Part shown: piece by piece, positions 1 through 64,000 of the stretch
Layout of the letters: the number at the start of each line of letters is the position of its first letter
Position numbering within the stretch: position 1 is the stretch's first letter
The notes under the pieces: generated by a model
The model's database searches: none
Seen by the model: the letters and a program-made list of their open reading frames with translations, nothing else
Told to the model about the DNA's origin: nothing
Position numbers and translations under genes: made by a program
Assembly (NCBI GenBank): GCA_022376925.1
Contig: JAIOJX010000005.1
Coordinates: forward strand, 161,699,001-161,763,000
From: Tragulus kanchil
Taxonomy: Eukaryota > Chordata > Mammalia > Artiodactyla > Tragulidae
Length of the DNA stretch: 64,000 bases
Direction: 5' to 3'

Positions 1-11
1 GACAGGAATTG

Positions 12-2105
12 CAGTAGTACTTTTTGATCTCCTACAGTAATGGAAATAAAAGGAAAAATAAACAAACTTGCACCTAATTAAATTTAAAACCTCTTGCACC
101 ACAAAAGAAACCATAAACAAAACAAAAAGACAACCCATAGAATGGGTGAAAAACGTTTGCAAATAATGAGACTGACAAAGGATTAATTTCTAAAATACAC
201 AAACAGCTCCTACATCTCAATGGAAAAAGAGATAGGCAGAAGACCTAAATAGACATTTCTCCAAAGAAGAGATACAGATACAACATGTGCATGAACAGGT
301 GCTCAGCATCACTAATTATCAGAGAAATGCAAATCAGAACTACTGTGAGGTACCACCTCACACTGGTCAGAATGGCCATCATCAAAAAGTCTATAAATAA
401 TAAATGCTGGAGAGGGTGTGGAGAAAACGGGACCCTCCTACACTGCTTGTGGGGAAAGTAAATTGGTGAAGCCACTATGGAGAATAGTATGGAGATTCCT
501 CAAAAACCTAAAAATAGAGTTACCAGTTACCATATGGTCCAGCAATCTCACTCCTTAGCATATGTCTGGAGAGAATTCTAATCCGAAAGGATACATGTAC
601 TCCAACGTTCACAGCAGCACTCGTTACAACAGCCAAGACCGGGAAGTAACCTAAACACCCACTCACAGACGAATGGATAAAGAAAACAAACAGGAGAGTC
701 GGCCTCTTGTCCCATCTGTGCCAAATGCCCTGGGCGGGTCCCCGCCTCTCACTCTCTCAGTGCCCACCTGCATTATGAGTATAGGGGCATGACTGTACCA
801 TATAGACACACCATATATACACAATGGAATATTACTCAGCCATAAAATGAATGAAATAACACCATTTGTAGCCATATGGTTGGACGTAGAGATTATTATA
901 TTAAGTGAAGTAAGCCAGAACGAGAAACACCAATTTTATATGTCACTTACAGGTGGAATCTAAAATGATGCAAAGGAATTTATATACAAAATAAAAACAG
1001 ACATAGAAAATGAACTTACGGTTACCAAAAGGAAAATAGGAGGTAAACAAAGCAGCACCTAATTAAACTTTAAACCTCTTTGCACCACAGTAGTACTTTT
1101 TGATCTCCTACAGTAATGGAAATAAAAGGAAAAATAAACAAACTTGCACCTAATTAAATTTAAAACCTCTTGCACCACAAAAGAAACCATAAACAAAACA
1201 AAAAGACAACCCATAGAATGGGTGAAAAACGTTTGCAAATAATGAGACTGACAAAGGATTAATTTCTAAAATACACAAACAGCTCCTACATCTCAATGGA
1301 AAAAGAGATAGGCAGAAGACCTAAATAGACATTTCTCCAAAGAAGAGATACAGATACAACATGTGCATGAACAGGTGCTCAGCATCACTAATTATCAGAG
1401 AAATGCAAATCAGAACTACTGTGAGGTACCACCTCACACTGGTCAGAATGGCCATCATCAAAAAGTCTATAAATAATAAATGCTGGAGAGGGTGTGGAGA
1501 AAACGGGACCCTCCTACACTGTTTGTGGGAATGTAAATTGGTGAAGCCACTATGGAGAATAGTATGGAGATTCCTCAAAAACCTAAAAATAGAGTTACCA
1601 GTTACCATATGGTCCAGCAATCTCACTCCTTAGCATATGTCTGGAGAGAATTCTAATCCGAAAGGATACATGTACTCCAACGTTCACAGCAGCACTCGTT
1701 ACAACAGCCAAGACCGGGAAGTAACCTAAACACCCACTCACAGACGAATGGATAAAGAAAACAAACAGGAGAGTCGGCCTCTTGTCCCATCTGTGCCAAA
1801 TGCCCTGGGCGGGTCCCCGCCTCTCACTCTCTCAGTGCCCACCTGCATTATGAGTATAGGGGCATGACTGTACCATATAGACACACCATATATACACAAT
1901 GGAATATTACTCAGCCATAAAATGAATGAAATAACACCATTTGTAGCCATATGGTTGGACGTAGAGATTATTATATTAAGTGAAGTAAGCCAGAACGAGA
2001 AACACCAATTTTATATGTCACTTACAGGTGGAATCTAAAATGATGCAAAGGAATTTATATACAAAATAAAAACAGACATAGAAAATGAACTTACGGTTAC
2101 CAAAA
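12..2105. repeat. Direct duplication 1 (12-1030 = 1088-2105)
   Basis: The two copies are offset by 1075-1076 bp and differ at only a few positions (for example near 446 versus 1522). Both lie within one L1 3' end. The spacer 1031-1087 is not unrelated DNA: its cacctaattaaac...cctctttgcaccac part is a corrupted version of about 80-103. This suggests a low-quality contig end. Confidence 0.95.
687..811. other. About 125-bp GC-rich insert inside the L1 3' end
   Basis: In L1 the part reading gaatggataaagaa is normally followed within about 15 bases by the tatacacaatggaatatt part. Here about 125 GC-rich bases (ggcctcttgtcccatctgtg ... gcccacctgcattatgag) separate them. The same insert recurs at about 1763-1886 because of duplication 1. 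I do not recognise the insert. Confidence 0.6.
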
Positions 2106-2584
2106 GGGAAAAGGTAGAGAGAGGAATAAATTAGGAATGTGGGATTAAGAGACACACTACAATATACAAAGTAGGTAAACAAAAAGGTCCTACAGCATAG
2201 CCCAGGGAACTATATTTGATATCCTGAATTAACTTATAATGGAAAAGAATCTGAAAAGGAATATATATGTATACATAGATAGCTGTACATATATATATAT
2301 ATATAACTAGATCACTTTGCTGTACACTAGAAACTAACACAACATTGTACATCAAGTATACTTCAGCTAAAAAAAGATGTCAAGGTAATTCAGTGCGTAA
2401 AGGATCGTCTTTTCCATAAATAACATTGGAAAGAACAGATGCAAAGAAAAGGATAAACACCATACAGAAAAAACAAACATGAAATGAAGCACAGACCTAA
2501 CAATCAACTAAAATTATTAAGCTTCTAAAAGAGCTTCTAAGACCCAATAGAATATATTTCACTCATACATTCATAAACCACAAA

Positions 2585-2745
2585 TCAGCCAGAGACATAA
2601 TTTAAAAATTCTTAGCAGCCACATTAAAAACATAAAAAGTAATGGGTGAGAATAACTTGGATATTTGATTTAATCTAAACCATTCAAAATATTATAATTT
2701 CAGCACATAACCAATAAAAAGATTACTGATGAGAAAAATATGCTG
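2585..2745 (+). mobile_element. Old L1M 3' UTR fragment
   Basis: It resembles the L1M 3' UTR: tagcagccacattaaaaac, then aatgggtgag, then caaaatattataatttcagc and aaccaataaaaagattactg. It is diverged. The AT-rich stretch 2377-2584 shows nothing else recognisable. Confidence 0.5.
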
Positions 2746-4684: not shown

Positions 4685-6916
4685 AAAAGCCAACGCGCCC
4701 CACCCTCATCTGTAGCCTCACCTTTCCTGGGCCACGAGCGGCTCGCAGGGTATACGGGCTTCCTGGGGCTCCTGTACAGCCTTCCTCCGAGAGAGCAGCT
4801 GAATTCCGCGCAGCTGATCCAGTCCTGTCTGGAGTGAGGGGAGGAAGTTGGGGCTGGAGAAGTCATTTGCAGGGGAGGAGCCCGCAGGTTGCAGAGGGAG
4901 GAGCTGTGCCACTTCCCAAAGTTCCAGCATCCCCCAAATTTCTGCGCGCTGGGAACTGGGAAGCAGGTCAGACGCGTTCCCAGCCCACTTACCAAGGTGA
5001 CAGATTACGTCCCTGAGATTTGAAACCAAGGTCCGCTGACTGAAAAGGTTTTGAAAGCCAAGGCGAAGGAGGGAGGCAGGCAGATGGGCCTCCATTACCT
5101 GCCTCCCAGTGGGGCTCTGGTGGGCAAAGAGCCTTGCTCTCTGAGAGTGGACTGGCCTCCCCTCCCTGAGCTCAGAGCGGCCCCTCCCTCTTGTCCTCCC
5201 GGACAGAGGCAGGGGCACTGGCAGGGTGGGCAGGGTGGGCCACGGTGGAGAGGCGTGGCTGGCACAGGTAAAGAGCACATCCTGCTGGTCCAGAGCTCAG
5301 GGATCCTGAGGAGCAAGGTATAATGTCCTGCTCCTGGACCTTCGTGTCAGGGACTCAGCTGGAAAGCAGCAGACTAGGCCTGCTCTATACTTGCTCTGAG
5401 GAGGGCTAACTCTCTGTCCAGGCCTTCCGGGGGAGCCAGTGGAGCCGGCGTGGAAAGAATGGGGCTGCTGGACTCAAGCAAAGTCCAATTTGAGTCCTGC
5501 CCTGGTGATGGTGTGGTGGTAGCCCAGTATTAAACTCGACCACTTGGGGCCCACCCTGCCCCTCTCCCAGCAGCCTCCAAGGGCTGGCGGGAAGTGACCA
5601 CAGGGCTTAGTGGGAGTGATCGCCCGCCTCTGCCATCGTCACCTGCCTCCACTCCAGCCCCGGCTCTCCCCACAGGCTGAATCAGAATCAGGCTTTCCAA
5701 GCTCGGTCACTGGGCGAGTTACACTCTCGTTGCACTCCATTCCTAGTCTATAAAATAAGGAAAATAATAGAGCTGAATCCAGCGGCTGGCTCGGTGAGGA
5801 GCTCAAAGGTAGTAAAAGCCAACGCGCCCCACCCTCATCTGTAGCCTCACCTTTCCTGGGCCACGAGCGGCTGCAGGGTATACGGGCTTCCTGGGGCTCC
5901 TGTACAGCCTTCCTCCGAGAGAGCAGCTGAATTCCGCGCAGCTGATCCAGTCCTGTCTGGAGTGAGGGGAGGAAGTTGGGGCTGGAGAAGTCATTTGCAG
6001 GGGAGGAGCCCGCAGGTTGCAGAGGGAGGAGCTGTGCCACTTCCCAAAGTTCCAGCATCCCCCAAATTTCTGCGCGCTGGGAACTGGGAAGCAGGTCAGA
6101 CGCGTTCCCAGCCCACTTACCAAGGTGACAGATTACGTCCCTGAGATTTGAAACCAAGGTCCGCTGACTGAAAAGGTTTTGAAAGCCAAGGCGAAGGAGG
6201 GAGGCAGGCAGATGGGCCTCCATTACCTGCCTCCCAGTGGGGCTCTGGTGGGCAAAGAGCCTTGCTCTCTGAGAGTGGACTGGCCTCCCCTCCCTGAGCT
6301 CAGAGCGGCCCCTCCCTCTTGTCCTCCCGGACAGAGGCAGGGGCACTGGCAGGGTGGGCAGGGTGGGCCACGGTGGAGAGGCGTGGCTGGCACAGGTAAA
6401 GAGCACATCCTGCTGGTCCAGAGCTCAGGGATCCTGAGGAGCAAGGTATAATGTCCTGCTCCTGGACCTTCGTGTCAGGGACTCAGCTGGAAAGCAGCAG
6501 ACTAGGCCTGCTCTATACTTGCTCTGAGGAGGGCTAACTCTCTGTCCAGGCCTTCCGGGGGAGCCAGTGGAGCCGGCGTGGAAAGAATGGGGCTGCTGGA
6601 CTCAAGCAAAGTCCAATTTGAGTCCTGCCCTGGTGATGGTGTGGTGGTAGCCCAGTATTAAACTCGACCACTTGGGGCCCACCCTGCCCCTCTCCCAGCA
6701 GCCTCCAAGGGCTGGCGGGAAGTGACCACAGGGCTTAGTGGGAGTGATCGCCCGCCTCTGCCATCGTCACCTGCCTCCACTCCAGCCCCGGCTCTCCCCA
6801 CAGGCTGAATCAGAATCAGGCTTTCCAAGCTCGGTCACTGGGCGAGTTACACTCTCGTTGCACTCCATTCCTAGTCTATAAAATAAGGAAAATAATAGAG
6901 CTGAATCCAGCGGCTG
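4685..6916. repeat. Direct duplication 2 (4685-5788 = 5814-6916)
   Basis: The copies are offset by 1128-1129 bp, with one 1-base indel seen (gctcgcagg versus gctgcagg). The spacer 5789-5813 contains ctcggtgagg, which in copy B occurs 18 bp further on (about 6937), so the tail of copy A looks like a collapsed version of the real continuation. Confidence 0.95.
5690..5800 (+). repeat. MIR-like SINE fragment (again at about 6818-6960)
   Basis: A weak MIR pattern is visible: cactgggcgagttac, then tctataaaataaggaaaata, and in copy B the continuation gctgtgaggactcag. The copy B version (6818-6960) is the more complete one because copy A is cut at the junction near 5789. Confidence 0.4.
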
Positions 6917-6999
6917 CTGTGAGGACTCAGGGAGTCCTCGGTGAGGGAATGAGTCTTGCAGAGAATCGGCTACGTGCCCGTGCTAGTCCTCGGAGCCAC

Positions 7000-7885: not shown

Positions 7886-7887
7886 TT

Positions 7888-8075
7888 CTCTGGTGGTCCA
7901 GTGGCTAAGACTCTGTGCTCCCAATGCATGGGGCCCAGGTTCAATCACCGGTCAGGGAACTATCTCCCACATTCTGCAATGAAGAGTTCACAGGTCGCAA
8001 CGAAGGTTGAAGATCCCCTGTGCTGCAATGGGAACCCATCGTGGCCAAAACAAACAAATAAAAATTTAAAAGAAA
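7888..8075 (+). mobile_element. CHR-1-type tRNA-Glu SINE (truncated copy at 9001-9169)
   Basis: The tRNA-like head cttctctggtggtccagtgg and ggttcaatcaccggtcaggg is followed by a CHR-type body and a tail of aaataaaaattt. Copy B begins inside the head at 9001 and lacks its first 19 bases, showing the duplication boundary is not a SINE boundary. Confidence 0.7.
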
Positions 8076-8095
8076 AAACACCAAGCTAACTATAA

Positions 8096-8275
8096 TATGA
8101 AAGTGTTAGTCGCTGGCCTGCCGGGATCCTCTGTCCATGGAATTCTCCAGGCGAGAATACTGGAATGGGTAGCCATTCCCTTCTCCAGGGAATATCCCCA
8201 ACCCAGGGATCAAACCCAGGTCTCCTACATTGCAGACAGATTCTTTAGGGTCTGAGCCCGCAGGGAAACCCTGTT
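8096..8275 (-). mobile_element. Bov-tA SINE, antisense (again at 9190-9369)
   Basis: Read on the minus strand it has the Bov-tA order: tRNA-Glu head (ending near 8270), ctgggttgggg..., and a BovA body with the ttccatggacagagg type motif. On the + strand it starts tgttagtcgctgg. The second copy comes from duplication 3. Confidence 0.8.
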
Positions 8276-8863
8276 TGTAATACCGGTGGAGTGATCTTGG
8301 CTGTAATTGGCAACTGTGGCCACAAGATGGCGCGTTCAGTACACCGCTTCCAGCATTACAGGGTTTTCCAATTGTGCAGGGCCGCCAGTCTGAGGTGGCC
8401 CTTCTCTGGGGGTGGGAGAGGCTCTGGCGCCCTCAGGGGGCTCAGAAGAGTCACCTGCATGGCACCTATTATGCAGGGAAACACATCTGGGGAGTTCAGG
8501 GCTGGGACTAGGGTAAAGGCAAGTGAGGCATCAAGGGTACACGTTTTAAGGAGGCTGTTGAGTGCCTCACGCTGCACCCTCGTCCAGGCCCCGAGTCTAC
8601 TGAGCTGGGATGTGTGTGTGAGAAGCAACCCGGGCGCTGGGAAACAGTCTCCGAGATCTTAGCAGAGAGGAAGACGCGTTACTACAGCTCTGGTCGGGTG
8701 GGCCCCTTCCACTTGGGGCACTGAGGCCTGTGGTCTCCTCAAGAGGGTATGGCTGGGACAATCAGATGTACTTTCTGGGAGAGAACTAAGGGGAAAGGAC
8801 TAGGTGCTGCCCATCTCCAGCGCGCCTCGAGTCAGAGGCGACGGTGGGCGTGGCCAGCCGAGG

Positions 8864-8878
8864 CCTGCAGGGGGCGGC
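8864..8878 (+). promoter_or_regulatory. CTCF-like motif in GC-rich block (again at 9958-9972)
   Basis: CCTGCAGGGGGCGGC matches the CTCF core moderately well. It lies in the GC-rich block 8280-8950 (8855-8900 is CpG-rich), which has no recognised gene although one frame is open for 123 codons from 8291. Both copies are the same site duplicated. Confidence 0.4.
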
Positions 8879-10047
8879 GGCTGAGCAGAGCGCCGCCTGG
8901 AGGCCCCGCTCCTATTTTGCAGCCTTCTGCAGCCTCCACTGAGATGGAGGAACAATGAGCGGCCTGCGCCAGTCACCGGTCAAGACTGAAGGTTTTTGGG
9001 AAGACTCTGTGCTCCCAATGCATGGGGCCCAGGTTCAATCACCGGTCAGGGAACTATCTCCCACATTCTGCAATGAAGAGTTCACAGGTCGCAACGAAGG
9101 TTGAAGATCCCCTGTGCTGCAATGGGAACCCATCGTGGCCAAAACAAACAAATAAAAATTTAAAAGAAAAAACACCAAGCTAACTATAATATGAAAGTGT
9201 TAGTCGCTGGCCTGCCGGGATCCTCTGTCCATGGAATTCTCCAGGCGAGAATACTGGAATGGGTAGCCATTCCCTTCTCCAGGGAATATCCCCAACCCAG
9301 GGATCAAACCCAGGTCTCCTACATTGCAGACAGATTCTTTAGGGTCTGAGCCCGCAGGGAAACCCTGTTTGTAATACCGGTGGAGTGATCTTGGCTGTAA
9401 TTGGCAACTGTGGCCACAAGATGGCGCGTTCAGTACACCGCTTCCAGCATTACAGGGTTTTCCAATTGTGCAGGGCCGCCAGTCTGAGGTGGCCCTTCTC
9501 TGGGGGTGGGAGAGGCTCTGGCGCCCTCAGGGGGCTCAGAAGAGTCACCTGCATGGCACCTATTATGCAGGGAAACACATCTGGGGAGTTCAGGGCTGGG
9601 ACTAGGGTAAAGGCAAGTGAGGCATCAAGGGTACACGTTTTAAGGAGGCTGTTGAGTGCCTCACGCTGCACCCTCGTCCAGGCCCCGAGTCTACTGAGCT
9701 GGGATGTGTGTGTGAGAAGCAACCCGGGCGCTGGGAAACAGTCTCCGAGATCTTAGCAGAGAGGAAGACGCGTTACTACAGCTCTGGTCGGGTGGGCCCC
9801 TTCCACTTGGGGCACTGAGGCCTGTGGTCTCCTCAAGAGGGTATGGCTGGGACAATCAGATGTACTTTCTGGGAGAGAACTAAGGGGAAAGGACTAGGTG
9901 CTGCCCATCTCCAGCGCGCCTCGAGTCAGAGGCGACGGTGGGCGTGGCCAGCCGAGGCCTGCAGGGGGCGGCGGCTGAGCAGAGCGCCGCCCTGGAGGCC
10001 CCGCTCCTATTTTGCAGCCTTCTGCAGCCTCCACTGAGATGGAGGAA

Positions 10048-11085
10048 AAAGAGCGGTGCTCCAACTGAGGCACAGAAGGCCTGGCGCCTGCCCATCGTTG
10101 ATCCTTGGTATCACTGGCGACACCGAGTAAACAAGGCAGCAGGCAGGGAGGCCCCTGGAGCCGGGCGAGGAGAGCTGATCAGTGGAGGAAGCACTGGGCG
10201 CTGGGCACACGGGCCGATGAGGATGTCGGCAAACACCTTGCTAAGTCTAAATCATCATCATGTATAAAACAAATGAGAGTATTGAGTTAAGGTGGAGGTG
10301 TGAAGAACCGGATGGAAAGATATGTTTAATGCAATATATGCAAAATTTGATTTCTTCCTTGTATATTTTTAAAAAATTTGATCATTTTAACATATAATCA
10401 ATATAAAGATTACGATGGAAAGATATAGTCTTCAGATACTAAGTCTTCCAAGATCTGGTTATTTACATTTATAGTGGAAATCTCAATTGGGATGCTAAAT
10501 TTCCATTGGAAATATTTTATCTATACTGAGATTTCACAAAATGCAGAGTTGAAAGAGATGATTCACCTTTCCAAATTGCTCCAGACATCTGTACATTTTT
10601 TCAATAATTGTATTGTGAATCAATTTTAAAATTAAAATTTAAATGAAAAATAAAAGTGAATTGTTCAATAACCAAAGGAGGCTACCAGCCTTGCTGTAGT
10701 GGATGATGAGGCACTAGACGTTTCATAGCTAAATATGTATACTAAAATTTTTAAAGTAACAGGAAAAGAAGTAGAATGTATAGCTTCCAAACCTGTAGAG
10801 GGAGATAAAGACAAAAAAAAAAAAAGAAAGACTAACAAATTCAACAGAATGAAGAAAGCGAGAAAAAGGAAAATCTTGGCAAATGGATACCCAAAGAAGA
10901 AGGTAAGAAATAGATAAAAACACACCAGTATCACAGTAAATGTAAACAGATTAAGTTCACACTTTAAATGATAGAGCTACTTAGGTTTGATTAAAAAATT
11001 AGAGGTGTAGGCAAGAGACTTAAAACATAGGAACACAGAAGTATTGAAAATCAATGAATCGAAAATGATACACCAGTCAGTAAAG
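10048..11085. other. AT-rich stretch with L1M remnant, no gene
   Basis: About 10350-10415 looks like a small L1M 3' UTR remnant (gatcattttaacatataatc). The rest is AT-rich with an A-run near 10814-10826 and no recognisable coding sequence. Confidence 0.45.
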
Positions 11086-11290: not shown

Positions 11291-12589
11291 GGCTTATACA
11301 CACCAGACAAATAGAAGTAAAAAGAAAATTTTTTCATAATATTAATATGACATAAGGTAGATTATGGCAAGGATTTTATCGAGAATAAAGATGGTCAACG
11401 CCAGATGATGAGAGGAACAAGTCTCAGAGATGCAAAAGTCTTGAACCTGTGAACACCTCACAACAGCTTGGAAGCTAGAAAACAAGCCAATGTGCTGGGT
11501 TTCTGGTGTGGATATTGCTCCATATTGATTCGAGATGTAGTCATGGAGGAGACTGGAAAAAGGCACATGGGACCTCTATAGATCATCTTGCAACTTCCTA
11601 CAAATATATTATCATTTTAACATAAGAAGTTTAAACATAGAATACAAAATAATGAGTCCTCACTAAAAGCAAATATATTCCATCTTCATGTTTTATGTGG
11701 GCACACAGAAAAGTCTTCTTAGGATATTGAAACGTCACTAGTATATATTATCTATTATACTTTTAAAGATTTCCCTACAGATCAAAAGGTAAAATGTATA
11801 TGATAATTAGCGTATGTAATTTCCCTTCTCCCATCAAGAGGTGGGACATGATGCTCTGAAATTTCTGCACACAGCCTCTGTCAAACCTGTCGGCTTCATT
11901 TTCTCTCCCTGGGAGTCAGCCACTCTGGGGTTAAAAGTATGTGTTCAAGTCCAATAAGTGATGAGAGGCTGTGGGGGAAAGAAAAGCTGCCAGGAGCACT
12001 GAGGCACCAGTTGTGTGAATAAAGATTCTTGGATATTCCAGCCTTCCGGGTGCTTAGGTGAATGCCGGCGGCATTCCCAGCACCCCCACCCCCCATGTGG
12101 AGTGAAAGAACTGCCCAGCTGAGCCCTACCTGCTTCCTGTCCCATGGAATCCTGAGGCACAATAAACAGCTATGGTTCTAAGCCATTATACTGTGTCACA
12201 CACCAGTAGGTATCTGAGACACTCTTCAATACAACTTGGAAACATTTGACAATAAAAGGTCTGATTAAATACCTACTGTTTGGCAGGCTCTGTGCTTGGG
12301 GAAGGGCTACAGAATGAATAAGAAAGAGCCCCTGACTCAGGAGCTCATGAACTGGAAAAGCAGGGAGGATGTTCTAACAATGATTTTCTGAACAGATGCA
12401 AGGGGGCAAGTGTAGGGTACTGTAGGAGGCGGGGAAGGAGAAGGAATCCTCCCCTAGAAAGGCAGGAATGGGACATCTCTTACTGTTGCTCCAGCCAGCC
12501 ATAACTTCTAGGGGGCATTCTGGGACACTTCCCTCGGGTGTGTTATGTGGATGGATTTTGTCCTGGATGCAGTAATGATGCTCGTTATC
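11291..12589. other. AT-rich to mixed sequence, no gene recognised
   Basis: 11291-11880 is AT-rich and 11880-12590 is mixed. An open frame of 88 codons on the minus strand at 11896-12162 recurs at 12983-13249 only because of duplication 4; it has no family motif. 12260-12330 may be a MIR/L2 trace. Confidence 0.4.
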
Positions 12590-13791
12590 GATAAGAGTGA
12601 AGACTTACTATGTGCCAAGTGCTGAGAATTCCCATTGTCCTCACAAGCATACATGAAGGAGAGTATCGCTAGGCCCCTGTACCCGTGGGAAAGCTGAGAC
12701 TTACAAAATATACTTTTTTAAAACATAGAATACAAAATAATGAGTCCTCACTAAAAGCAAATATATTCCATCTTCATGTTTTATGTGGGCACACAGAAAA
12801 GTCTTCTTAGGATATTGAAACGTCACTAGTATATATTATCTATTATACTTTTAAAGATTTCCTACAGATCAAAAGGTAAAATGTATATGATAATTAGCGT
12901 ATGTAATTTCCCTTCTCCCATCAAGAGGTGGGACATGATGCTCTGAAATTTCTGCACACAGCCTCTGTCAAACCTGTCGGCTTCATTTTCTCTCCCTGGG
13001 AGTCAGCCACTCTGGGGTTAAAAGTATGTGTTCAAGTCCAATAAGTGATGAGAGGCTGTGGGGGAAAGAAAAGCTGCCAGGAGCACTGAGGCACCAGTTG
13101 TGTGAATAAAGATTCTTGGATATTCCAGCCTTCCGGGTGCTTAGGTGAATGCCGGCGGCATTCCCAGCACCCCCACCCCCCATGTGGAGTGAAAGAACTG
13201 CCCAGCTGAGCCCTACCTGCTTCCTGTCCCATGGAATCCTGAGGCACAATAAACAGCTATGGTTCTAAGCCATTATACTGTGTCACACACCAGTAGGTAT
13301 CTGAGACACTCTTCAATACAACTTGGAAACATTTGACAATAAAAGGTCTGATTAAATACCTACTGTTTGGCAGGCTCTGTGCTTGGGGAAGGGCTACAGA
13401 ATGAATAAGAAAGAGCCCCTGACTCAGGAGCTCATGAACTGGAAAAGCAGGGAGGATGTTCTAACAATGATTTTCTGAACAGATGCAAGGGGGCAAGTGT
13501 AGGGTACTGTAGGAGGCGGGGAAGGAGAAGGAATCCTCCCCTAGAAAGGCAGGAATGGGACATCTCTTACTGTTGCTCCAGCCAGCCATAACTTCTAGGG
13601 GGCATTCTGGGACACTTCCCTCGGGTGTGTTATGTGGATGGATTTTGTCCTGGATGCAGTAATGATGCTCGTTATCGATAAGAGTGAAGACTTACTATGT
13701 GCCAAGTGCTGAGAATTCCCATTGTCCTCACAAGCATACATGAAGGAGAGTATCGCTAGGGCCCCTGTACCCGTGGGAAAGCTGAGACTTA
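11633..13791. repeat. Direct duplication 4 (11633-12703 = 12721-13791)
   Basis: The offset is 1088 bp. The spacer 12704-12720 resembles a deleted form of the sequence before copy A (11600-11632), as expected for a noisy contig start. A MIR is cut at the end of copy A and continues intact after copy B. Confidence 0.95.
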
Positions 13792-16027: not shown

Positions 16028-16550
16028 TTACCTGGGTTCAATCCCCAGTTTGGGAAGATCCCCTGGAAAAGGACATGGCAACCCACTCCAGTATTCTTTT
16101 TTTTTTTTTAATATTTATTTATTTATTTATTTTCGGGGGGAGGGGCGGGGATGCGGTGGGGAGGGAGCAGGGTGGGGGGGCCGCTTACATTGAGCTTTCG
16201 TTTTTTTGTCTATTTTCATCCATCTTCATTCTTTGGCCTGTGTGGGCCTCCCATCGCAGTGGCCTCTGTTGTCACTGAGCACCGGCTCTGGGCGCATGCG
16301 CTCCAGAGCTCCGGCTCGGTAATTGGACACATCGGTCCAGCAGCTCCGCAGCACGTGGGATCGTCCCAGGCCAGGGATGAAACCGGCGCCCCTTGCACTG
16401 CAAGGCGGTGTCCCTACCCACTGGACCACCAGGGAAGCCCCCACTCCAGTATTCTTGCCTGGAGAATTCCCAAGGACAGAAGAGCCTGGCGGGCTACAGT
16501 CCACAGGGTTGCAAAGAGTCAGCCACGACTGAGTGACTAAGCAGAGCACA
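16028..16550 (+). mobile_element. Bov-tA SINE split by a CHR-2 insertion
   Basis: The left half is 16028-16098 (gggttcaatccccagtttgg) and the right half resumes at 16440 (cctggagaattcccaaggac, gcaaagagtcagccacgac). The 17-base sequence cccactccagtattctt flanks the insert on both sides (16082-16098 and 16440-16456) as the target-site duplication. Confidence 0.85.
16099..16439 (-). mobile_element. CHR-2 SINE, antisense, nested in Bov-tA (partial copy 17320-17513)
   Basis: It starts with a poly-T tract (reversed tail) and ends with the reversed tRNA-Glu head (ctggaccaccagggaagcc). The body contains ggcctgtgtgggcctcc and aattggacacatcggtccag. It was inserted after Bov-tA, so it is younger. The partial copy at 17320 has no poly-T end because duplication 5 begins inside it. 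Confidence 0.85.
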
Positions 16551-18403
16551 TACAGCAAAAGTTTCTGTAACATATAATTTAACTGTAAAGTTTTAATAAC
16601 AGAAATATTTTTCTTCTCTCTGAGTCAATCATGTGTCTTGGTTCTACAGCAATACCAGGTTTGAAACCACATTATTGTCAATGTGATTTATTCATTTTCT
16701 AGTTTTGAGAGTCAACATACTGACAAAGCAAGGAAGACTTTTAGTTATGTAACAAATACTTTAAACCCTGATGATATGAAAACAATAGTATAAGAAACAA
16801 AGATGGGGGGAAAGGGAAGAATAGCTAAGCTAGTATCTTTGTCTTGCAGAGCAGCAAACAGTCTTAATTTCGCACATAGAAAAGTGAATATACTACTTGA
16901 AGTCAGAAAGGTAATTATTAGAAGGAATTATAAAAATACAATGAACAAAGCTGGAAAGGTAACGCTTAGAGGAATAAAATAAAAATATAATTATTAACCA
17001 GGAAGGCTCACGGAGAAGAAAAAAATAAAATAGTGTAATGCTCATTTTCTTATTTTTCATGTCTGCAGGTCTAAAGGTACAGTCCAAAATTAATCCTAAT
17101 AGAGAAGTATTAAAGTCATAATGGTAACCATCAAAAGATCTAAAAGCAATGGCTTTTAGCCATTAACTGGGCAGAGGGGAGAATGATCATGGGCAAAAGG
17201 GAAACTGCCTTCTATGTTCTTATTAAAAGCTGAATTTTACCTCCATGTATAGATTAATTTTATTAAAAAAAGAAAGAAAAACATTGCTACTGTTAAAAGT
17301 GGTGGCCCAGATGAAATCTGCCTCCCATCGCAGTGGCCTCTGTTGTCACTGAGCACCGGCTCTGGGCGCATGCGCTCCAGAGCTCCGGCTCGGTAATTGG
17401 ACACATCGGTCCAGCAGCTCCGCAGCACGTGGGATCGTCCCAGGCCAGGGATGAAACCGGCGCCCCTTGCACTGCAAGGCGGTGTCCCTACCCACTGGAC
17501 CACCAGGGAAGCCCCCACTCCAGTATTCTTGCCTGGAGAATTCCCAAGGACAGAAGAGCCTGGCGGGCTACAGTCCACAGGGTTGCAAAGAGTCAGCCAC
17601 GACTGAGTGACTAAGCAGAGCACATACAGCAAAAGTTTCTGTAACATATAATTTAACTGTAAAGTTTTAATAACAGAAATATTTTTCTTCTCTCTGAGTC
17701 AATCATGTGTCTTGGTTCTACAGCAATACCAGGTTTGAAACCACATTATTGTCAATGTGATTTATTCATTTTCTAGTTTTGAGAGTCAACATACTGACAA
17801 AGCAAGGAAGACTTTTAGTTATGTAACAAATACTTTAAACCCTGATGATATGAAAACAATAGTATAAGAAACAAAGATGGGGGGAAAGGGAAGAATAGCT
17901 AAGCTAGTATCTTTGTCTTGCAGAGCAGCAAACAGTCTTAATTTCGCACATAGAAAAGTGAATATACTACTTGAAGTCAGAAAGGTAATTATTAGAAGGA
18001 ATTATAAAAATACAATGAACAAAGCTGGAAAGGTAACGCTTAGAGGAATAAAATAAAAATATAATTATTAACCAGGAAGGCTCACGGAGAAGAAAAAAAT
18101 AAAATAGTGTAATGCTCATTTTCTTATTTTTCATGTCTGCAGGTCTAAAGGTACAGTCCAAAATTAATCCTAATAGAGAAGTATTAAAGTCATAATGGTA
18201 ACCATCAAAAGATCTAAAAGCAATGGCTTTTAGCCATTAACTGGGCAGAGGGGAGAATGATCATGGGCAAAAGGGAAACTGCCTTCTATGTTCTTATTAA
18301 AAGCTGAATTTTACCTCCATGTATAGATTAATTTTATTAAAAAAAAAAAAGAAAGAAAAACATTGCTACTGTTAAAAAGTGGTGGCCCAGATGAAATCTG
18401 CCT
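16246..18403. repeat. Direct duplication 5 (16246-17323 = 17320-18403)
   Basis: The offset is 1074 bp, rising to 1080 because a poly-A run is longer in copy B. There is no spacer: the join falls at a shared gcct (17320-17323), where the end of copy A (the head of a Bov-tA) meets the interior of a CHR-2. Both SINEs are truncated at the join. Confidence 0.95.
16551..17319. other. AT-rich sequence, nothing recognised (again at about 17625-18377)
   Basis: There are no open frames of interest and no repeat I can name. It ends in an A-rich run near 17274 whose length differs between copies (7 versus 12 A). Confidence 0.5.
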
Positions 18404-18560
18404 ACGATGCAGGAGCCCCAGGCTTGATCCCCTGGACAAGGGAATGGCAACCCACTTCAGTACTCCTGCCTGGGAAATCCTATGGACAGAGGAGCCTGGG
18501 GGGCTCCAGATCATGGAGTTGCAAAGAGTCAAACAGGACTGAACGAGTTTCACTTTTCAC
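18378..18560 (+). mobile_element. Bov-tA SINE (again at 19490-19671)
   Basis: The order is a tRNA-like head with gatgaaatctgcctacgatg, ggcttgatcccctggacaag, ggcaacccacttcagtactc and a BovA end with gttgcaaagagtcaaac. The head of the same element is the point where duplication 5 breaks (17323). Confidence 0.8.
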
Positions 18561-18771
18561 TGTCAAAAAAAGCAACTTCCAGCCTGGACCCCATATACCT
18601 TGAGGTAATCCCTTTTAAAGTATAGTCTGCTTTCCACCACATATGTAAACGTCCTAAAAGGCCTGAAGTCACATTCAACCCCTCTTTCCAGTTTCCATAT
18701 GCTCCACCTTTGCCTGCCAGCCAGGTGAATTCTCCTGTTACACAGCAGAGTGGCCACATTTTGGGCTTGTC

Positions 18772-18975
18772 TACACCTGTGGTCAAGAATCTGCCTGCCA
18801 ATGCAGTAAACTTAAAATATATGGGTTTCATCACTGGGTGGGGAAGATTCCCCTGGAGTAAGACACGGCAACCCACGCCAGGATTCTTCCCTGGGGAAAA
18901 AACCCCATGGACAGAGGAGCCTGGTGGGCAACAGTCCATAGGGTCACAAAGAGGCGCACACAACTGAAGCAACTT
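18772..18975 (+). mobile_element. Bov-tA SINE (again at 19883-20086)
   Basis: Visible parts are gtcaagaatctgcctgccaa, ggaagattcccctggag, ggcaacccacgccaggattc and ggtcacaaagaggcgcacac. It is moderately diverged. The second copy arises from duplication 6. Confidence 0.8.
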
Positions 18976-19281
18976 AGCGTGCAAGCACACCACACATATT
19001 CATAACGTTGTAAATATTGCACCTGGCCATATGGTGCGTTCTTACTATTTATTCGTCACCCTAAATTCGTGTGCGGGGTCCAGGAAGGTCCAGCGCGGTT
19101 AGACTCCTTACTCAGACGGTTTAGTGGCTTCTTAGGGCAAGTTCCTGTTCTCAGCAGCGAAGGATTAAGACAGGATAATACCGTCCAGGGCGTCATCCCT
19201 CCTCCCTTCCAGGAAATGCAGTGCTTCCCCAGGTCACTAGTCCACGCGCGTAAGGCTCCCACCTTGGAGAACCTCACAGTA

Positions 19282-19300
19282 CCTCCAGCAGGGGGCGGTA
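19282..19300 (+). promoter_or_regulatory. CTCF-like motif (again at 20393-20411)
   Basis: CCTCCAGCAGGGGGCGGTA is close to the CTCF core (CCAGCAGGGGGCG). It is in unique sequence, not in a SINE. Both copies are the same site in duplication 6. Confidence 0.55.
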
Positions 19301-43038: not shown

Positions 43039-43300
43039 GGGCTTCCCTGGTGGTCCAGTGGGTAAAAAGTCCACCTTGAAGTGCAAGGGGCACCAGTTCA
43101 ATCCCTGGCCCGGGAAGAGCCCACGTGCTGTGGAGTGCAGGTGTGTCCAATTAGGAGCCAGCGCTCTGGAGCGCATGTGCCCAGATCCAGAACTCTACAA
43201 TGAGAGAGGCCATCGCAATGGAGGCCCACACAGGCTAAAGAATAAAGATGGATAAAAGTAAATAAAAAATAAAAATAAAAGAGGCCAAAAAATTTAAAAA
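43039..43300 (+). mobile_element. CHR-2 SINE (again at 44131-44390)
   Basis: The head gggcttccctggtggtccag, cagttcaatccctggcccgg, body gtgtccaattaggagcc and aggctaaagaataaagatgg, with an A-rich (AAAT)n tail. One 2-base indel separates the copies near 43285/44377. Confidence 0.9.
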
Positions 43301-52388: not shown

Positions 52389-54550
52389 GGCCGAGCCCCT
52401 CTCTCCTCCCTGGGCACCAAGTTGAGCCCTTTTTGAGCTCAGCCCCAGTGTGCAGTGCTGCCTCAGACCCAGGGGAACCCTGCTTTGGCTACAGACTCAC
52501 AGTGGGACCTTGGACAGGTCACATCTCTGCTCTGAGCCTTAGTACCATCTGCAGACAAAGGCACTGGATATGGGAGGACAGGAGATCCAAACATCGCTAG
52601 ATGGGAGGAAGATTAGCTGAAGAAATGCAGGTAAATGCCTGTATGAAGAAGGTTCTAATAAATACCACCCCAGAGCCCTGATTTAACTCCCTCTGTGAGG
52701 CCCTATTATTATCCCATTTCACAAATGAGGACACGGAGCCTGGGACAGGTTTCGTCACTTGGTCTAAGCCCACTGGACTCAAACTGGGGCAGCCTGGCCC
52801 CAGAGTCTGTGCTGGTGTGGGCGCCTGGGCACAGAGGTGAGGAGACCCTTCTGACGACACAGTGGGTTAGCCTGGCTTCTCCTTGCTGTTCTTCAGGCAG
52901 TCCTGACAGGCCACTCCCTGTTACCTTCCTTTCACAAAGAAAACTGAAGCCACCTATGGGAGGACAGGAGAGGAGGCCACAGCTTGACATCTGAGTCAGA
53001 CAACTTCTCCACACAATTCACGGATCCCATTTCGTTAGACATTCTTGTTTTTCTAAAATCTTTGTCTTTTCAAGGGGACACTTCAGTCAATATGGCTTCT
53101 TAATTCAGAGGGGATCTGAGGGGCTCTGTTTCCGCAAGGTGTCCAGCTGTGTTCCCCAGGGTCACCTTTTCGTATCCTGACCTGACACTCACTTTGTCTT
53201 CTCACCTGCTTATTCTAGAAACGTGGTGGCATGTTAGCAAGGCCTCGAATACATTTTATTGAATGAACCAGCTAGTAGCACCTGCAGGTGTAGCCCTAAG
53301 ATAGAGCCAAGCCTAGCTTGACTTCAGCCTCTATCCTGTGTGTTGGGATGTCCATGCTAGACTTTGGCTGGTTCTGGTGATGGGAATGTCAGTTTGATTT
53401 GAGATATAATGACTTTCAGAGTCTGGGGAAAATCTAAGTAGAAAAAGAACTTATTAAAAAGGGTTTTATTCGGTGAAGAGGGGGGCCGAGCCCCTCTCTC
53501 CTCCCTGGGCACCAAGTTGAGCCCTTTTTGAGCTCAGCCCCAGTGTGCAGTGCTGCCTCAGACCCAGGGGAACCCTGCTTTGGCTACAGACTCACAGTGG
53601 GACCTTGGACAGGTCACATCTCTGCTCTGAGCCTTAGTACCATCTGCAGACAAAGGCACTGGATATGGGAGGACAGGAGATCCAAACATCGCTAGATGGG
53701 AGGAAGATTAGCTGAAGAAATGCAGGTAAATGCCTGTATGAAGAAGGTTCTAATAAATACCACCCCAGAGCCCTGATTTAACTCCCTCTGTGAGGCCCTA
53801 TTATTATCCCATTTCACAAATGAGGACACGGAGCCTGGGACAGGTTTCGTCACTTGGTCTAAGCCCACTGGACTCAAACTGGGGCAGCCTGGCCCCAGAG
53901 TCTGTGCTGGTGTGGGCGCCTGGGCACAGAGGTGAGGAGACCCTTCTGACGACACAGTGGGTTAGCCTGGCTTCTCCTTGCTGTTCTTCAGGCAGTCCTG
54001 ACAGGCCACTCCCTGTTACCTTCCTTTCACAAAGAAAACTGAAGCCACCTATGGGAGGACAGGAGAGGAGGCCACAGCTTGACATCTGAGTCAGACAACT
54101 TCTCCACACAATTCACGGATCCCATTTCGTTAGACATTCTTTTTTTCTAAAATCTTTGTCTTTTCAAGGGGACACTTCAGTCAATATGGCTTCTTAATTC
54201 AGAGGGGATCTGAGGGGCTCTGTTTCCGCAAGGTGTCCAGCTGTGTTCCCCAGGGTCACCTTTTCGTATCCTGACCTGACACTCACTTTGTCTTCTCACC
54301 TGCTTATTCTAGAAACGTGGTGGCATGTTAGCAAGGCCTCGAATACATTTTATTGAATGAACCAGCTAGTAGCACCTGCAGGTGTAGCCCTAAGATAGAG
54401 CCAAGCCTAGCTTGACTTCAGCCTCTATCCTGTGTGTTGGGATGTCCATGCTAGACTTTGGCTGGTTCTGGTGATGGGAATGTCAGTTTGATTTGAGATA
54501 TAATGACTTTCAGAGTCTGGGGAAAATCTAAGTAGAAAAAGAACTTATTA
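52389..54550. repeat. Direct duplication 16 (52389-53456 = 53484-54550)
   Basis: The offset is 1094-1095 bp. The spacer 53457-53483 resembles a shortened form of the sequence after copy B (about 54551-54585: ggttat...ttcgg). Confidence 0.95.
52690..52830 (-). repeat. MIR SINE, antisense (again at 53785-53925)
   Basis: It reads ctattattatcccatttcac, aaatgaggacacggagcctg and actcaaactggggcagcc. Just upstream, 52480-52565 looks like a + strand MIR piece (gaccttggacaggtcacatc). Confidence 0.65.
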
Positions 54551-58645: not shown

Positions 58646-59345
58646 CACATGGCATTCACATTCCTGTCCTCCTACCTACTGACCCCAGATCCCAGCTTTT
58701 ACACATTGTTTTTGTGTTTACTAACAGAGAAGTTCTTTTAAGTTAACTTGGGGGATTGAAGAGTTACTTTGAGAGCAAAGTTCTCTAAAAATATTGAGTG
58801 TGAAACAAATCAGGCTGAGAATGAAGAACTTACATCTTTTTAGTCTCATGTGATGAAATTAAAACAGAAGATATGGAATAACATGTACAAATACATTCAC
58901 AAATAACATACCATCTACAAATACTGAGAGACATTTACATGTCTCTTCTATTTACTCAGCATTTTAAAAGAGGAGCTGTGTCAAATGAAAATAAATAAAG
59001 ACTTTGGTGTTAAAAGTTTGCATTTCAACTGGACATCCCATTACCTGGGTGCTGTCTGGCTCGTGTTTCCTTACTTAAATAGGGAAAATAAGAGCATTCA
59101 TGTCTCTTGTGAGTGTTTAGAATCCAGGATGGTGCCTGGCAAATGTTAGTTTGTCAATATGAGTCACGTCTAAATTGGAATCTCTTTCCTCAGAAGGTTC
59201 CTTATTTTAGTGAGTTTCAGAATCTTAGAGGAACCATCTGTAATAGGAACTAGACTGAATGAGGCTGATACCTCGTCCCACAATCAGCTTCATCAGCAAG
59301 TGTCGTGAAGGGGCTGCTCAGTTTTCTTTTCTGTTCTGAATTCAG

Positions 59346-59596
59346 ATTTACTTTGCTGAGGCATGGAGGTGAAAGACGTCTCAGAGGCTGAAGACAGAGC
59401 TGAGGACGCAGGTCCCCAAAATAAAGGCCAGTCCGATGTTACTCAACCTGACTTGCCACCAGGAGGGCAGACTCCTGGCCCCACTGCCCTGTGGGAGCTG
59501 CTAGAAAGGAAGTTTCTGGAATACCAGCAGTTGGCTCCCAGGAGCCCAGCTGAACAGAAGAAGAGCCTGTTGAATCTTCTCCCACTGTTCCTAAAG
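59346..59596 (+). CDS. WDFY4: WDFY4 first coding exon, copy A (78 codons, then splice donor)
   Basis: The coding part is 59363-59596; 59346-59362 is 5' UTR within the exon. A pyrimidine-rich tract ends in an AG acceptor at 59344-59345, the start codon sits in a good Kozak context (G at -3 and +4), and the frame stays open for 78 codons to a GT donor at 59597 in phase 0. The peptide starts MEVKDVSEAEDRAED and contains ELLERKFLEYQQLAP and LLNLLPLFLK. I recognise this from memory as the N-terminus of WDFY4, a very large BEACH/WD40/FYVE-type protein that acts in classical dendritic cells for cross-presentation of cell-associated antigen. The open frame running to 59632 past the donor is intronic read-through. 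No later WDFY4 exon is visible, so the gene continues beyond the window on the + strand. The exon recurs unchanged 1088 bp downstream. The family assignment is strong; that this is the true genomic copy is not decided by sequence. Confidence 0.85.
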
Positions 59597-60433
59597 GTTG
59601 GTATTCTCATTTTCAAAACGGTAAAAAGATGATACAGCGCTCTGGGGACCCTGTGGGGATGATTGGAGGCTGGAGTCGGGTGGTTTAATATCACCACACA
59701 TGGTCTCTGATTGGTTGGTTAGAGGAGAGCGTTGTAATGTTTCATAAAGACAGCAAGCAGGGCTCGTCTCACATGCTTACAGTTAACTAATGTTTGTTCT
59801 TGTGTTTACTAACAGAGAAGTTCTTTTAAGTTAACTTGGGGGATTGAAGAGTTACTTTGAGAGCAAAGTTCTCTAAAAATATTGAGTGTGAAACAAATCA
59901 GGCTGAGAATGAAGAACTTACATCTTTTTAGTCTCATGTGATGAAATTAAAACAGAAGATATGGAATAACATGTACAAATACATTCACAAATAACATACC
60001 ATCTACAAATACTGAGAGACATTTACATGTCTCTTCTATTTACTCAGCATTTTAAAAGAGGAGCTGTGTCAAATGAAAAATAAAACAGACTTTGGTGTTA
60101 AAAGTTTGCATTTCAACTGGACATCCCATTACCTGGGTGCTGTCTGGCTCGTGTTTCCTTACTTAAATAGGGAAAATAAGAGCATTCATGTCTCTTGTGA
60201 GTGTTTAGAATCCAGGATGGTGCCTGGCAAATGTTAGTTTGTCAATATGAGTCACGTCTAAATTGGAATCTCTTTCCTCAGAAGGTTCCTTATTTTAGTG
60301 AGTTTCAGAATCTTAGAGGAACCATCTGTAATAGGAACTAGACTGAATGAGGCTGATACCTCGTCCCACAATCAGCTTCATCAGAAAGTGTCGTGAAGGG
60401 ACTGCTCAGTTTTCTTTTCTGTTCTGAATTCAG

Positions 60434-60684
60434 ATTTACTTTGCTGAGGCATGGAGGTGAAAGACGTCTCAGAGGCTGAAGACAGAGCTGAGGACGCAGG
60501 TCCCCAAAATAAAGGCCAGTCCGATGTTACTCAACCTGACTTGCCACCAGGAGGGCAGACTCCTGGCCCCACTGCCCTGTGGGAGCTGCTAGAAAGGAAG
60601 TTTCTGGAATACCAGCAGTTGGCTCCCAGGAGCCCAGCTGAACAGAAGAAGAGCCTGTTGAATCTTCTCCCACTGTTCCTAAAG
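60434..60684 (+). CDS. WDFY4: WDFY4 first coding exon, copy B (duplicate of 59346-59596)
   Basis: This is the same exon again: UTR 60434-60450, coding 60451-60684, GT donor at 60685, with an identical predicted peptide. Just upstream there are two single-base differences from copy A (cagcaag versus cagaaag, and aggggct versus agggact). The exon lies inside a 1.06 kb direct duplication (58712-59770 versus 59800-60858) that matches the period and junction style of 17 other duplications here. If both exons were spliced into one mRNA, the 17-nt UTR of the second would be read in frame and give a TGA within nine codons, so the two cannot both contribute to a normal protein. One copy is very probably an assembly artefact. 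The alternative, a real tandem exon duplication giving alternative first coding exons, is unlikely. Confidence 0.7.
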
Positions 60685-60764
60685 GTTGGTATTCTCATTT
60701 TCAAAACGGTAAAAAGATGATACAGCGCTCTGGGGACCCTGTGGGGATGATTGGAGGCTGGAGT

Positions 60765-62998
60765 CGGGTGGTTTAATATCACCACACATGGTCTCTGATT
60801 GGTTGGTTAGAGGAGAGCGTTGTAATGTTTCATAAAGACAGCAAGCAGGGCTCGTCTCCAGGGTGAGGATGGGCTTGAAAAGGATGGACAGTCCGCTCTT
60901 GAGTACTATTGTCTCTTTAGTTAAAAAAAATGGTATTGCTCAACAATGATATTGTTCAATCCCAGCTTGGGAGTAGGGGATAAACCTTGTCCTTTGGGAG
61001 GGAGGAAAGGAATCTGGGTCCTGACATGTGAGTGCATGTGACAAGTGAGTGGCAGGGTGCCTGGTAACTCGACACTAGCAATGCAGACACCAGGGCCAGG
61101 GAGAGCCAGAACCCTCGTTCTGTCAACAATTCAAACTGAGGTGTCAGTCAGAGCTGCTGTAGACACACAAGAGAAGCCCTACCTGTCCCCTGGGCTGACA
61201 TTCTGGCTGGTGGCAGCTAGTGACAGGTTGGGCACAAGGGATTTCCTCTACCGCCTTGGAATGAAGTTCGTCCCAGTGAGCTCTGCCTTGGCAGTTAAGT
61301 ATGTCGAAGTTTAACTGTGGAGCTGGAAAAGAATCCTTTTATGAAGGCTTAGTTTTTGCTTGATTACTGATTTGGAACTATTATTACAAAATCCATGCTC
61401 CCACATTCAAAGTATGGAGACCATGAGATACTTTCACATTTGAAAGTAAACTCAGATAGAGGGAGGCTTTGGCAGATTTGTACCCAGAAACTCCTTTGCT
61501 AATATGTTTCATCTAACCTATTAACCAGAAATACTTAAGGATTTCCAAAGTTGACTCAGAATTTCCCTGGGATTATATTTACAGGATGCACTGAATACTT
61601 AGGCATGCCTTTCTGTAAAAAGTTGCCAAGTAACTTACTATCTATGACTTCATTATTTTTCTCCATGTTTTGGACTAGTATACTTCATCCATCCCATTTC
61701 ACAGATTGGATAACTGGGACATAGGGAACATACTGGGAAAGAGAACTAGATAAAGAGAGATGGCTTAGGTGTCTCATTTCCAGCCCTTCCTGCTCCGATG
61801 ACCCCAGCTTCTGGGAGGCTGCTTCTTTGTCCTACCCAGTTCTCAGATCAACTTTGCCTTCTAAGAGGAAAAACGTGAGAACGGGTGGTTTAATATCACC
61901 ACACGTGGTCTCTGATTGGTTGGTTAGAGGAGAGCGTTGTAATGTTTCATAAAGACAGCAAGCAGGGCTCGTCTCCAGGGTGAGGATGGGCTTGAAAAGG
62001 ACGGACAGTCCGCTCTTGAGTACTATTGTCTCTTTAGTTAAAAAAAATGGTATTGCTCAACAATGATATTGTTCAATCCCAGCTTGGGAGTAGGGGATAA
62101 ACCTTGTCCTTTGGGAGGGAGGAAAGGAATCTGGGTCCTGACATGTGAGTGCATGTGACAAGTGAGTGGCAGGGTGCCTGGTAACTCGACACTAGCAATG
62201 CAGACACCAGGGCCAGGGAGAGCCAGAACCCTCGTTCTGTCAACAATTCAAACTGAGGTGTCAGTCAGAGCTGCTGTAGACACACAAGAGAAGCCCTACC
62301 TGTCCCCTGGGCTGACATTCTGGCTGGTGGCAGCTAGTGACAGGTTGGGCACAAGGGATTTCCTCTACCGCCTTGGAATGAAGTTCGTCCCAGTGAGCTC
62401 TGCCTTGGCAGTTAAGTATGTCGAAGTTTAACTGTGGAGCTGGAAAAGAATCCTTTTATGAAGGCTTAGTTTTTGCTTGATTACTGATTTGGAACTATTA
62501 TTACAAAATCCATGCTCCCACATTCAAAGTATGGAGACCATGAGATACTTTCACATTTGAAAGTAAACTCAGATAGAGGGAGGCTTTGGCAGATTTGTAC
62601 CCAGAAACTCCTTTGCTAATATGTTTCATCTAACCTATTAACCAGAAATACTTAAGGATTTCCAAAGTTGACTCAGAATTTCCCTGGGATTATATTTACA
62701 GGATGCACTGAATACTTAGGCATGCCTTTCTGTAAAAAGTTGCCAAGTAACTTACTATCTATGACTTCATTATTTTTCTCCATGTTTTGGACTAGTATAC
62801 TTCATCCATCCCATTTCACAGATTGGATAACTGGGACATAGGGAACATACTGGGAAAGAGAACTAGATAAAGAGAGATGGCTTAGGTGTCTCATTCCCAG
62901 CCCTTCCTGCTCCCATGACCCCAGCTTCTGGGAGGCTGCTTCTTTGTCCTACCCAGTTCTCAGATCAACTTTGCCTTCTAAGAGGAAAAACGTGAGAA
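60765..62998. repeat. Direct duplication 18 (60765-61881 = 61882-62998)
   Basis: The offset is 1117 bp with abutting copies. It overlaps duplication 17 by about 94 bp, so the segment containing tctctgattggttggttag occurs at about 59677, 60765 and 61882. Confidence 0.95.
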
Positions 62999-63192
62999 TC
63001 ACTGTTCCTCACTCTGAAAATCACTGGAACTGTGTATAGGTTCAGCCATAGAAAGCACTATATCTTTTCCACCCCTCTGGGCAGCCCTAGCTCTGATGAA
63101 AGCACTCTACATCTGAGAGCCAGGACTTGATACCTCTTTGTTTCTCTCCAGATTGTTGATTTGAGAATGCATTCTTTTGTTGTACAAACATT
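60859..63192. other. Presumed WDFY4 intron, including duplication 18
   Basis: It follows the WDFY4 exon donor, so it should be intronic. The 89-codon frame at 61045 recurs at 62162 through duplication 18, has no acceptor or family motif, and I leave it as non-coding. No further WDFY4 exon is seen. Confidence 0.5.
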
Positions 63193-63340
63193 TGGGCTTT
63201 CCTAGTAGCTCAGACTGTAAAGAATCTGCCTGCAATGTAGAAGACCTGGGCTTACTTCCTAGGACAGGAAGATCCCCTGGAAAAGGGAAGAACTACCCAT
63301 TTCAGTATTATTGCCTGGAAAATTCCATGGATGGGCAAGT
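63193..63340 (+). mobile_element. Bov-tA SINE, 3'-truncated
   Basis: It reads gggctttcctagtagctcag, aagaatctgcctgcaatgta, gaagatcccctggaaaaggg and ends near attccatggatgggcaa. The BovA end is missing or very diverged. Confidence 0.8.
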
Positions 63341-63967
63341 TATTTAGTGAGCTCCTACCCTCTATTCTAGCGTCTGGTGCTATGAACGTTAGGAAGACTG
63401 ACAGAGGTTTTACCTGCACCTTCTTAATTAACAGTTGGGAGCAGAAAGGAACATGGGGAAGGTGGGAAGTTTCTTTAGGGTGTAGTGAGGACAAAATCTG
63501 AGTTACAGATGAAGCCTGAGAATGGCCATTGAATTACAACAGCCACTGTAATACAATGTAAGAAGGCAAGCTTGTAAAAACTCTCTTCTGAATGTTATAT
63601 TCGTAAAACATAATTCTTCAGGTTGTCTGCTAAGAACCCTCTTAGAAGTATCAGGACTCAAAAAGTCTTGCCAACTCCCATGGCATCTGGCCAGTAAAGC
63701 CTTACCTGCATCCCCTTGAATTAAAAAAGACGGCCACCCCCTGCACTTGCACTGCTTGGGGAGCTGACTCCAGGATGCTGCAGACAAGGAGGTGATTTCA
63801 TTGCATCACGTGGGAAGCAGCATAGAGCCAGTGATGTCCTGGGGTACAGAGCAATGCTGGCAGGAAGGATTCAGTGGACTGTTGTTCTTTCCTTGCCAAC
63901 AGCCTTGGGCATTGATCTTTCTGGAACCCTCCAAAAACAAGCTCTTACAGCAAGAGAAGAAGGCATG
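63341..63967. other. Presumed WDFY4 intron, nothing recognised
   Basis: Mixed sequence. The pyrimidine-rich ttctttccttgccaacag ending at about 63901 looks like a splice acceptor with an open frame after it, but the peptide does not match any WDFY4 exon I can recall. Confidence 0.35.
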
Positions 63968-64000
63968 CCCCAGCTTCTGGGACTCCTACCCAGTTCTCAG
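63968..64000. repeat. Start of a 19th duplication, cut by the window end
   Basis: The last 33 bases repeat 62919-62963 with an internal deletion of about 11 bases (ttctggga joined directly to ctcctacccag). The distance of about 1.04-1.05 kb and the noisy start match the other 18 pairs. Confidence 0.75.

What the first reader, a model, noticed from the sequence alone, without database searches (positions are those of the whole stretch)
1..64000. Systematic about 1.1 kb head-to-tail duplications: eighteen pairs plus one partial
Eighteen direct duplications with offsets between 1054 and 1198 bp cover the window, and the second copies sum to about 19.7 kb (about 31%). Copies differ at only a few bases although they contain old MIR and L1 elements, and unrelated sequences share nearly the same period. 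No known biological process produces serial single duplications of near-constant size at unrelated sites every 2-8 kb. The best explanation is overlapping contig ends (or gap-fill flanks) placed next to each other without merging.
Basis: partly seen in the sequence, partly recalled or inferred. Interest (0 to 1): 0.9.

Follow-up and report, generated by a model that had tools for sequence, protein, structure and literature searches.

The report
Unmerged contig ends faking tandem duplications
The eighteen "duplications" of about 1.1 kb in this stretch of what looks like a hoofed mammal's genome are very probably an assembly error, in which neighbouring pieces that overlap by about 1.1 kb were laid side by side instead of merged; it is ordinary as biology but inflates this stretch by almost half.

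Summary
In detail: 18 direct pairs (aligned copies 1020-1186 bp, offsets 1055-1198 bp, mean 1108, SD 37) lie head to tail at sites that share only interspersed repeats and, between neighbours, short end overlaps; second copies total 19.6 kb, 30.6% of the window. I did not find the "one partial" pair. The artefact reading is supported. Copies differ at 51 places in 19.5 kb, 28 of them indels, and 23 of 51 lie within 60 bp of a copy end. Spacers are 0-64 bp; 6 of the 13 of 10 bp or more are exact or damaged versions of the sequence preceding copy A. In three places with three copies that differ, the middle copy is never the deviant (0 of 8 resolvable sites; my reading). This fits contigs sharing one terminal read of about 1.1 kb, concatenated unmerged: the 'homotype false duplication' at contig boundaries, often a read long, known from vertebrate assemblies (PMC8081667, passages). 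Against it: no N gaps, and 24 of 51 differences lie well inside copies. No reads or second assembly could be tested; the window's own genome was not searchable. Interest is low.

The parts
12..2107 (+). pair 1: copy A 12-1032, spacer 55 bp, copy B 1088-2107
4724..6916 (+). pair 2: A 4724-5788, spacer 64 bp (its right 39 bp equal the left flank of A), B 5853-6916
7907..10056 (+). pair 3: A 7907-8962, spacer 38, B 9001-10056
11633..13791 (+). pair 4: A 11633-12703, spacer 17, B 12721-13791
16246..18403 (+). pair 5: A 16246-17323, B 17320-18403 (no spacer, 4 bp shared); its end overlaps pair 6
18232..20449 (+). pair 6: A 18232-19336, spacer 6 (CCCCCC), B 19343-20449
20565..22794 (+). pair 7: A 20565-21674, no spacer, B 21675-22794
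23378..25747 (+). pair 8: A 23378-24561, spacer 2, B 24564-25747; copies identical; overlaps pair 9
25647..28030 (+). pair 9: A 25647-26832, spacer 12, B 26845-28030; copies identical
28749..30985 (+). pair 10: A 28749-29860, spacer 12, B 29873-30985; overlaps pair 11
30896..33070 (+). pair 11: A 30896-31974, spacer 17 (resembles left flank with deletions), B 31992-33070; copies identical
34915..37029 (+). pair 12: A 34915-35949, spacer 41 (left flank with deletions), B 35991-37029
39851..41945 (+). pair 13: A 39851-40891, spacer 14 (equals left flank), B 40906-41945
42464..44603 (+). pair 14: A 42464-43513, spacer 43 (resembles left flank), B 43557-44603; meets pair 15 with 2 bp overlap
44602..46835 (+). 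pair 15: A 44602-45704, spacer 28 (left flank with deletions), B 45733-46835
52389..54550 (+). pair 16: A 52389-53456, spacer 27, B 53484-54550
58706..60858 (+). pair 17: A 58706-59770, spacer 23, B 59794-60858; overlaps pair 18
60769..62998 (+). pair 18: A 60769-61881, spacer 4, B 61886-62998

Best explanation
The window is a string of 19 contigs (17 complete ones of 2.0-7.7 kb) from one mammalian locus, laid end to end without merging their overlaps. In the preferred version neighbouring contigs both contain the same terminal read, or read-like piece, of about 1.1 kb: contig i ends with it and contig i+1 begins with it. The offset (aligned copy plus spacer) is then about the length of that read, and the spacer is the read's low-quality tail and head, which the other contig's better reads replaced. 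The real locus is then about 44 kb without these duplications. Shown here: the pairs, their end-clustered differences, the flank-like spacers, the triples. Inferred: that the shared unit is a single read, and that a merging step failed. A capillary (Sanger-type) read fits the 1.05-1.2 kb length and the poor ends, but that is a guess from recall. The confidence given is for the artefact as a whole; within it the gap-fill rival below keeps about a quarter.
For: All 18 pairs are direct, adjacent and of one size class (mean offset 1108, SD 37) at sites related only by interspersed repeats and neighbour overlaps. 51 differences in 19.5 kb: 28 indels (17 of homopolymer type) and 23 mismatches; 23 of 51 lie within 60 bp of a copy end, where 11% are expected (binomial p about 1e-9; 13 of 31 if neighbouring differences are merged, p about 1e-5). 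Of 13 spacers of 10 bp or more, 6 (pairs 2, 11, 12, 13, 14, 15) match the left flank of A better than all 60 shuffles, pairs 11 and 14 only narrowly. Spacers (403 bases) are rich in homopolymer runs of 4 or more (18% against a mean of 8.5% in randomly placed pieces; 0.2% of 2000 draws reach it). In triples the middle copy, far from its own contig ends, is never the odd one (0 of 8 resolvable sites; 5 in the first copy, 3 in the third, 1 more ambiguous; my reading). Five of 17 complete pieces (2017-2269 bp) equal two offsets minus 76-168 bp, and none is shorter, as contigs of two overlapping reads would be. [quoted passage not shown]
Against: No reads, depth or second assembly could be examined. 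There are no Ns at the joins, whereas PMC8081667 describes a gap between copies. 7 of 13 spacers of 10 bp or more do not pass against the left flank, and none passes against the right flank (best: pair 2, reached by 3 of 60 shuffles). 24 of 51 differences lie 100 bp or more from the copy ends, some in tight clusters, which the model allows but does not predict. A 2-kb length filter on contigs would also give the floor in piece length.
Confidence: 0.9

Rival explanations
1. Gap-fill flanks (a version of the same artefact): some pieces are gap-closing patches with about 1.1 kb of flank on both sides, inserted without trimming the flanks.
For: Five 2.0-2.3 kb pieces sit over places where their neighbours overlap each other by 2-172 bp, and in triples the neighbours' ends carry the deviations.
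Against: Patches and contigs should alternate, but the five small pieces (numbers 5, 8, 10, 14, 17, counting the first piece as 0) do not keep one parity; a fixed flank should give a near-constant offset, yet it ranges over 143 bp.
Confidence: 0.25
2. Heterotype false duplication: the two haplotypes of the animal were placed one after the other.
For: Some scattered differences in copy cores (24 lie 100 bp or more from an end, 13 of them mismatches).
Against: Indels outnumber mismatches and differences cluster at ends; 3 of 18 pairs are identical; the cases in cow, chimpanzee and chicken had a median identity of 98.1% and few above 99.5% (PMC2864568, section 6), here 98.75-100%.
Confidence: 0.05
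3. Real biological tandem duplications of about 1.1 kb produced by one process at 18 unrelated sites.
For: The copies are joined without Ns.
Against: Deviations sit at the inner ends, 6 of 13 spacers are exact or degraded flank sequence, and third copies of 94-183 bp occur where two pairs meet; no process known to me makes single duplications of one size at unrelated sites.
Confidence: 0.02

Closest known systems
Homotype false duplication, type 'overlapping sequences at contig boundaries' (Vertebrate Genomes Project, PMC8081667, passages seen)
   Same: tandem copies that fit contig boundaries, of near-uniform read-like length, with sequencing-error type differences
   Different: no N gap between copies here, and 18 in a row within 64 kb; read depth not tested
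Duplicated overlapping contigs (Kelley and Salzberg 2010, PMC2864568, passages and section 6 seen)
   Same: neighbouring contigs whose overlapping ends are both kept; cow among the genomes
   Different: those were attributed to haplotype differences, median identity 98.1%; here 98.75-100% with end-clustered, indel-rich differences

Membership tests
Homotype false duplication at contig boundary | direct adjacent copies of one locus | tested here: met
   18 of 18 pairs
Homotype false duplication at contig boundary | duplicated length about a read length | tested here: inconclusive
   offsets of 1055-1198 bp are read-like, but the reads are unknown
Homotype false duplication at contig boundary | differences are sequencing errors, not haplotype variants | tested here: inconclusive
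   for: 28 of 51 indels, 23 of 51 within 60 bp of ends, 0 of 8 triple sites in the middle copy; open: 24 of 51 differences lie inside the copies and no reads were seen
Homotype false duplication at contig boundary | gap (Ns) between copies after scaffolding | tested here: not met
   no Ns in the window; a depth gap was not testable; the noisy spacers may be its counterpart
Homotype false duplication at contig boundary | reduced read depth, k-mer copy-number excess, no spanning reads | not testable with these tools
   no reads available
Heterotype false duplication (duplicated overlapping contigs) | haplotype-level divergence spread over the copy | tested here: not met
   23 of 51 differences within 60 bp of ends; 3 of 18 pairs identical

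The most novel reading that the evidence does not exclude
A replication- or repair-linked process in this animal makes serial single tandem duplications of about 1.1 kb at unrelated sites, with template-switched, degraded filler at each junction.
Probability: 0.01. Interest if true: 0.95.

Novelty: not a real feature. Interest (0 to 1): 0.1.

Why it matters
If the rest of the assembly is like this window, about 31% of it is redundant (summed offsets 19,941 of 64,000), gene models would carry false exon duplications, and work on segmental duplications or copy number from it would be wrong. The pattern (direct pairs of one offset class, noisy spacers, short third copies where pairs meet) could serve to spot such assemblies without reads.

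Tried and rejected
Real tandem duplication and haplotype duplication were considered and rejected on the evidence above. Vector and adaptor sequences: 11 sequences recalled from memory, substitutions only, 1 allowed (5 for the three longest), gave no match. Plasmid records: three queries covering the whole window gave no match. Rfam: 0 matches at gathering score. Pfam on 10 of the 72 open frames of 110 aa or more: no family at E 0.1, so no gene names the locus. Independent copies of the locus: one 30-base exact pattern in viral contigs and one 29-base SINE-like exact pattern in genome contigs gave nothing; both collections are viral or prokaryotic, so this weighs nothing. Literature: 7 searches (others returned nothing, 16 listed 15 of 2,126) found the general artefact; I could not name the assembly, so I could not search for it by name. 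A strict patch-contig alternation was tried and does not hold without extra assumptions (piece lengths). The window's own genome: seven identical requests, none answered.

Full report
Limits first. The search of the window's own genome was asked seven times and each time the machine was busy, so nothing here rests on the assembly outside the 64 kb. No reads and no second mammalian assembly were at hand.

Observation. A 24-mer self-comparison, local alignments and blastn agree on 18 direct pairs. Aligned copies are 1020-1186 bp, offsets 1055-1198 bp (mean 1108, SD 37). Second copies sum to 19,558 bp, 30.6% of the window; taking each locus once leaves 44,059 bp. Five of five block-shuffled controls had no run of 60 bp or more, against 31 in the window. 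Copies of different pairs share only matches of 77-89% identity, taken here for interspersed repeats, and the end overlaps of neighbours 5/6, 8/9, 10/11 and 17/18. At identity above 93% and length above 60 bp there are no inverted pairs and no direct pairs 3.5 kb or more apart.

Anatomy of a join. Each site reads L - A - spacer - B - R. The spacer is 0-64 bp (in pair 5 the copies share 4 bp instead). For the 13 spacers of 10 bp or more I aligned the spacer, anchored at the copy edge, to the left flank L and the right flank R, with 60 shuffles each. Six of 13 match L better than every shuffle (pairs 2, 11, 12, 13, 14, 15; 11 and 14 narrowly), two over an exact stretch (39 and 14 bp in pairs 2 and 13) and others with block deletions; none passes against R. 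So in these six B is preceded by an exact or damaged version of what precedes A, as if the second contig started a little earlier with poor sequence. The other seven spacers stay unexplained. Spacers hold twice the expected share of homopolymer runs of 4 or more (0.2% of 2000 random draws reach it).

Differences. There are 51: 28 indels (17 of homopolymer type) and 23 mismatches (14 transitions). 23 of 51 lie within 60 bp of a copy end (expected 11%, p about 1e-9); merging neighbours, 13 of 31 clusters (p about 1e-5). Against a pure end-error picture, 24 of 51 lie 100 bp or more from the ends, several in small clusters (pairs 1, 10, 12, 17). Pairs 8, 9 and 11 are identical. This is not the SNP-rich, even pattern expected of haplotypes or of aged duplicates.

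Triples. Where two pairs overlap, three copies exist over 94-183 bp. At the 8 sites that I could resolve by eye the odd copy is the first (5: end of the left contig) or the third (3: start of the right contig), never the middle one; one further site has three states. The differing sites are in 5/6, 10/11 and 17/18; 8/9 has none and 14/15 meets by only 2 bp. The middle copy is the one far from its own contig ends. Under equal odds 0 of 8 has a chance of about 0.04, so alone this is modest support.

Mechanism. If neighbouring contigs share one terminal read, contig i ends with it and contig i+1 begins with it; the offset is about the read's length, the spacer is its bad tail plus its bad head, errors cluster at its ends, and the smallest contig is two overlapping reads, about 2.1 kb. 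Five of 17 complete pieces are 2017-2269 bp, two offsets minus 76-168 bp, and none is shorter; a 2-kb length filter would give the same floor. That the shared unit is a read, and of what technology, is inference; 1.05-1.2 kb with poor ends resembles untrimmed capillary reads (recall). The gap-fill version predicts alternating patches and contigs and a constant flank; parity fails and the offset varies, but it is not excluded.

Literature. [quoted passage not shown] PMC9516828 (passages seen) lists low depth, gaps between copies and read discordance as marks of false duplications. PMC2864568 (passages, section 6) reports duplicated overlapping contigs, in cow among others, at a median identity of 98.1%, attributed to haplotypes.

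Origin. SINE pieces that I recall as ruminant tRNA and Bov-A types occur repeatedly; that the window is ruminant rests on recall and on no database match. No Rfam family and, on 10 of 72 long frames, no Pfam family was found.

Verdict. An assembly artefact of a known kind, dense here. Interest 0.1.

Noticed in passing
28505-28724: Tandem array of a 50-bp unit, 4.4 copies, 82% matches, just left of pair 10; an ordinary minisatellite as far as seen.
   Followed up: no
7887-7960: ARAGORN calls a tRNA-Trp; it overlaps the left edge of pair 3 and lies in what I recall as SINE-like sequence, so it is probably a tRNA-derived SINE, not a gene.
   Followed up: partly
12-2107, 28749-30985, 34915-37029 (pairs 1, 10, 12); 11633-13791, 18232-20449, 20565-22794 (pairs 4, 6, 7): Differences inside copies fall at similar distances from the copy start: 425-454 in pairs 1, 10 and 12 (tight clusters), 140-144 in pairs 4, 6 and 7; possibly where another read begins or ends in one of the two contigs, possibly chance.
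   Followed up: no
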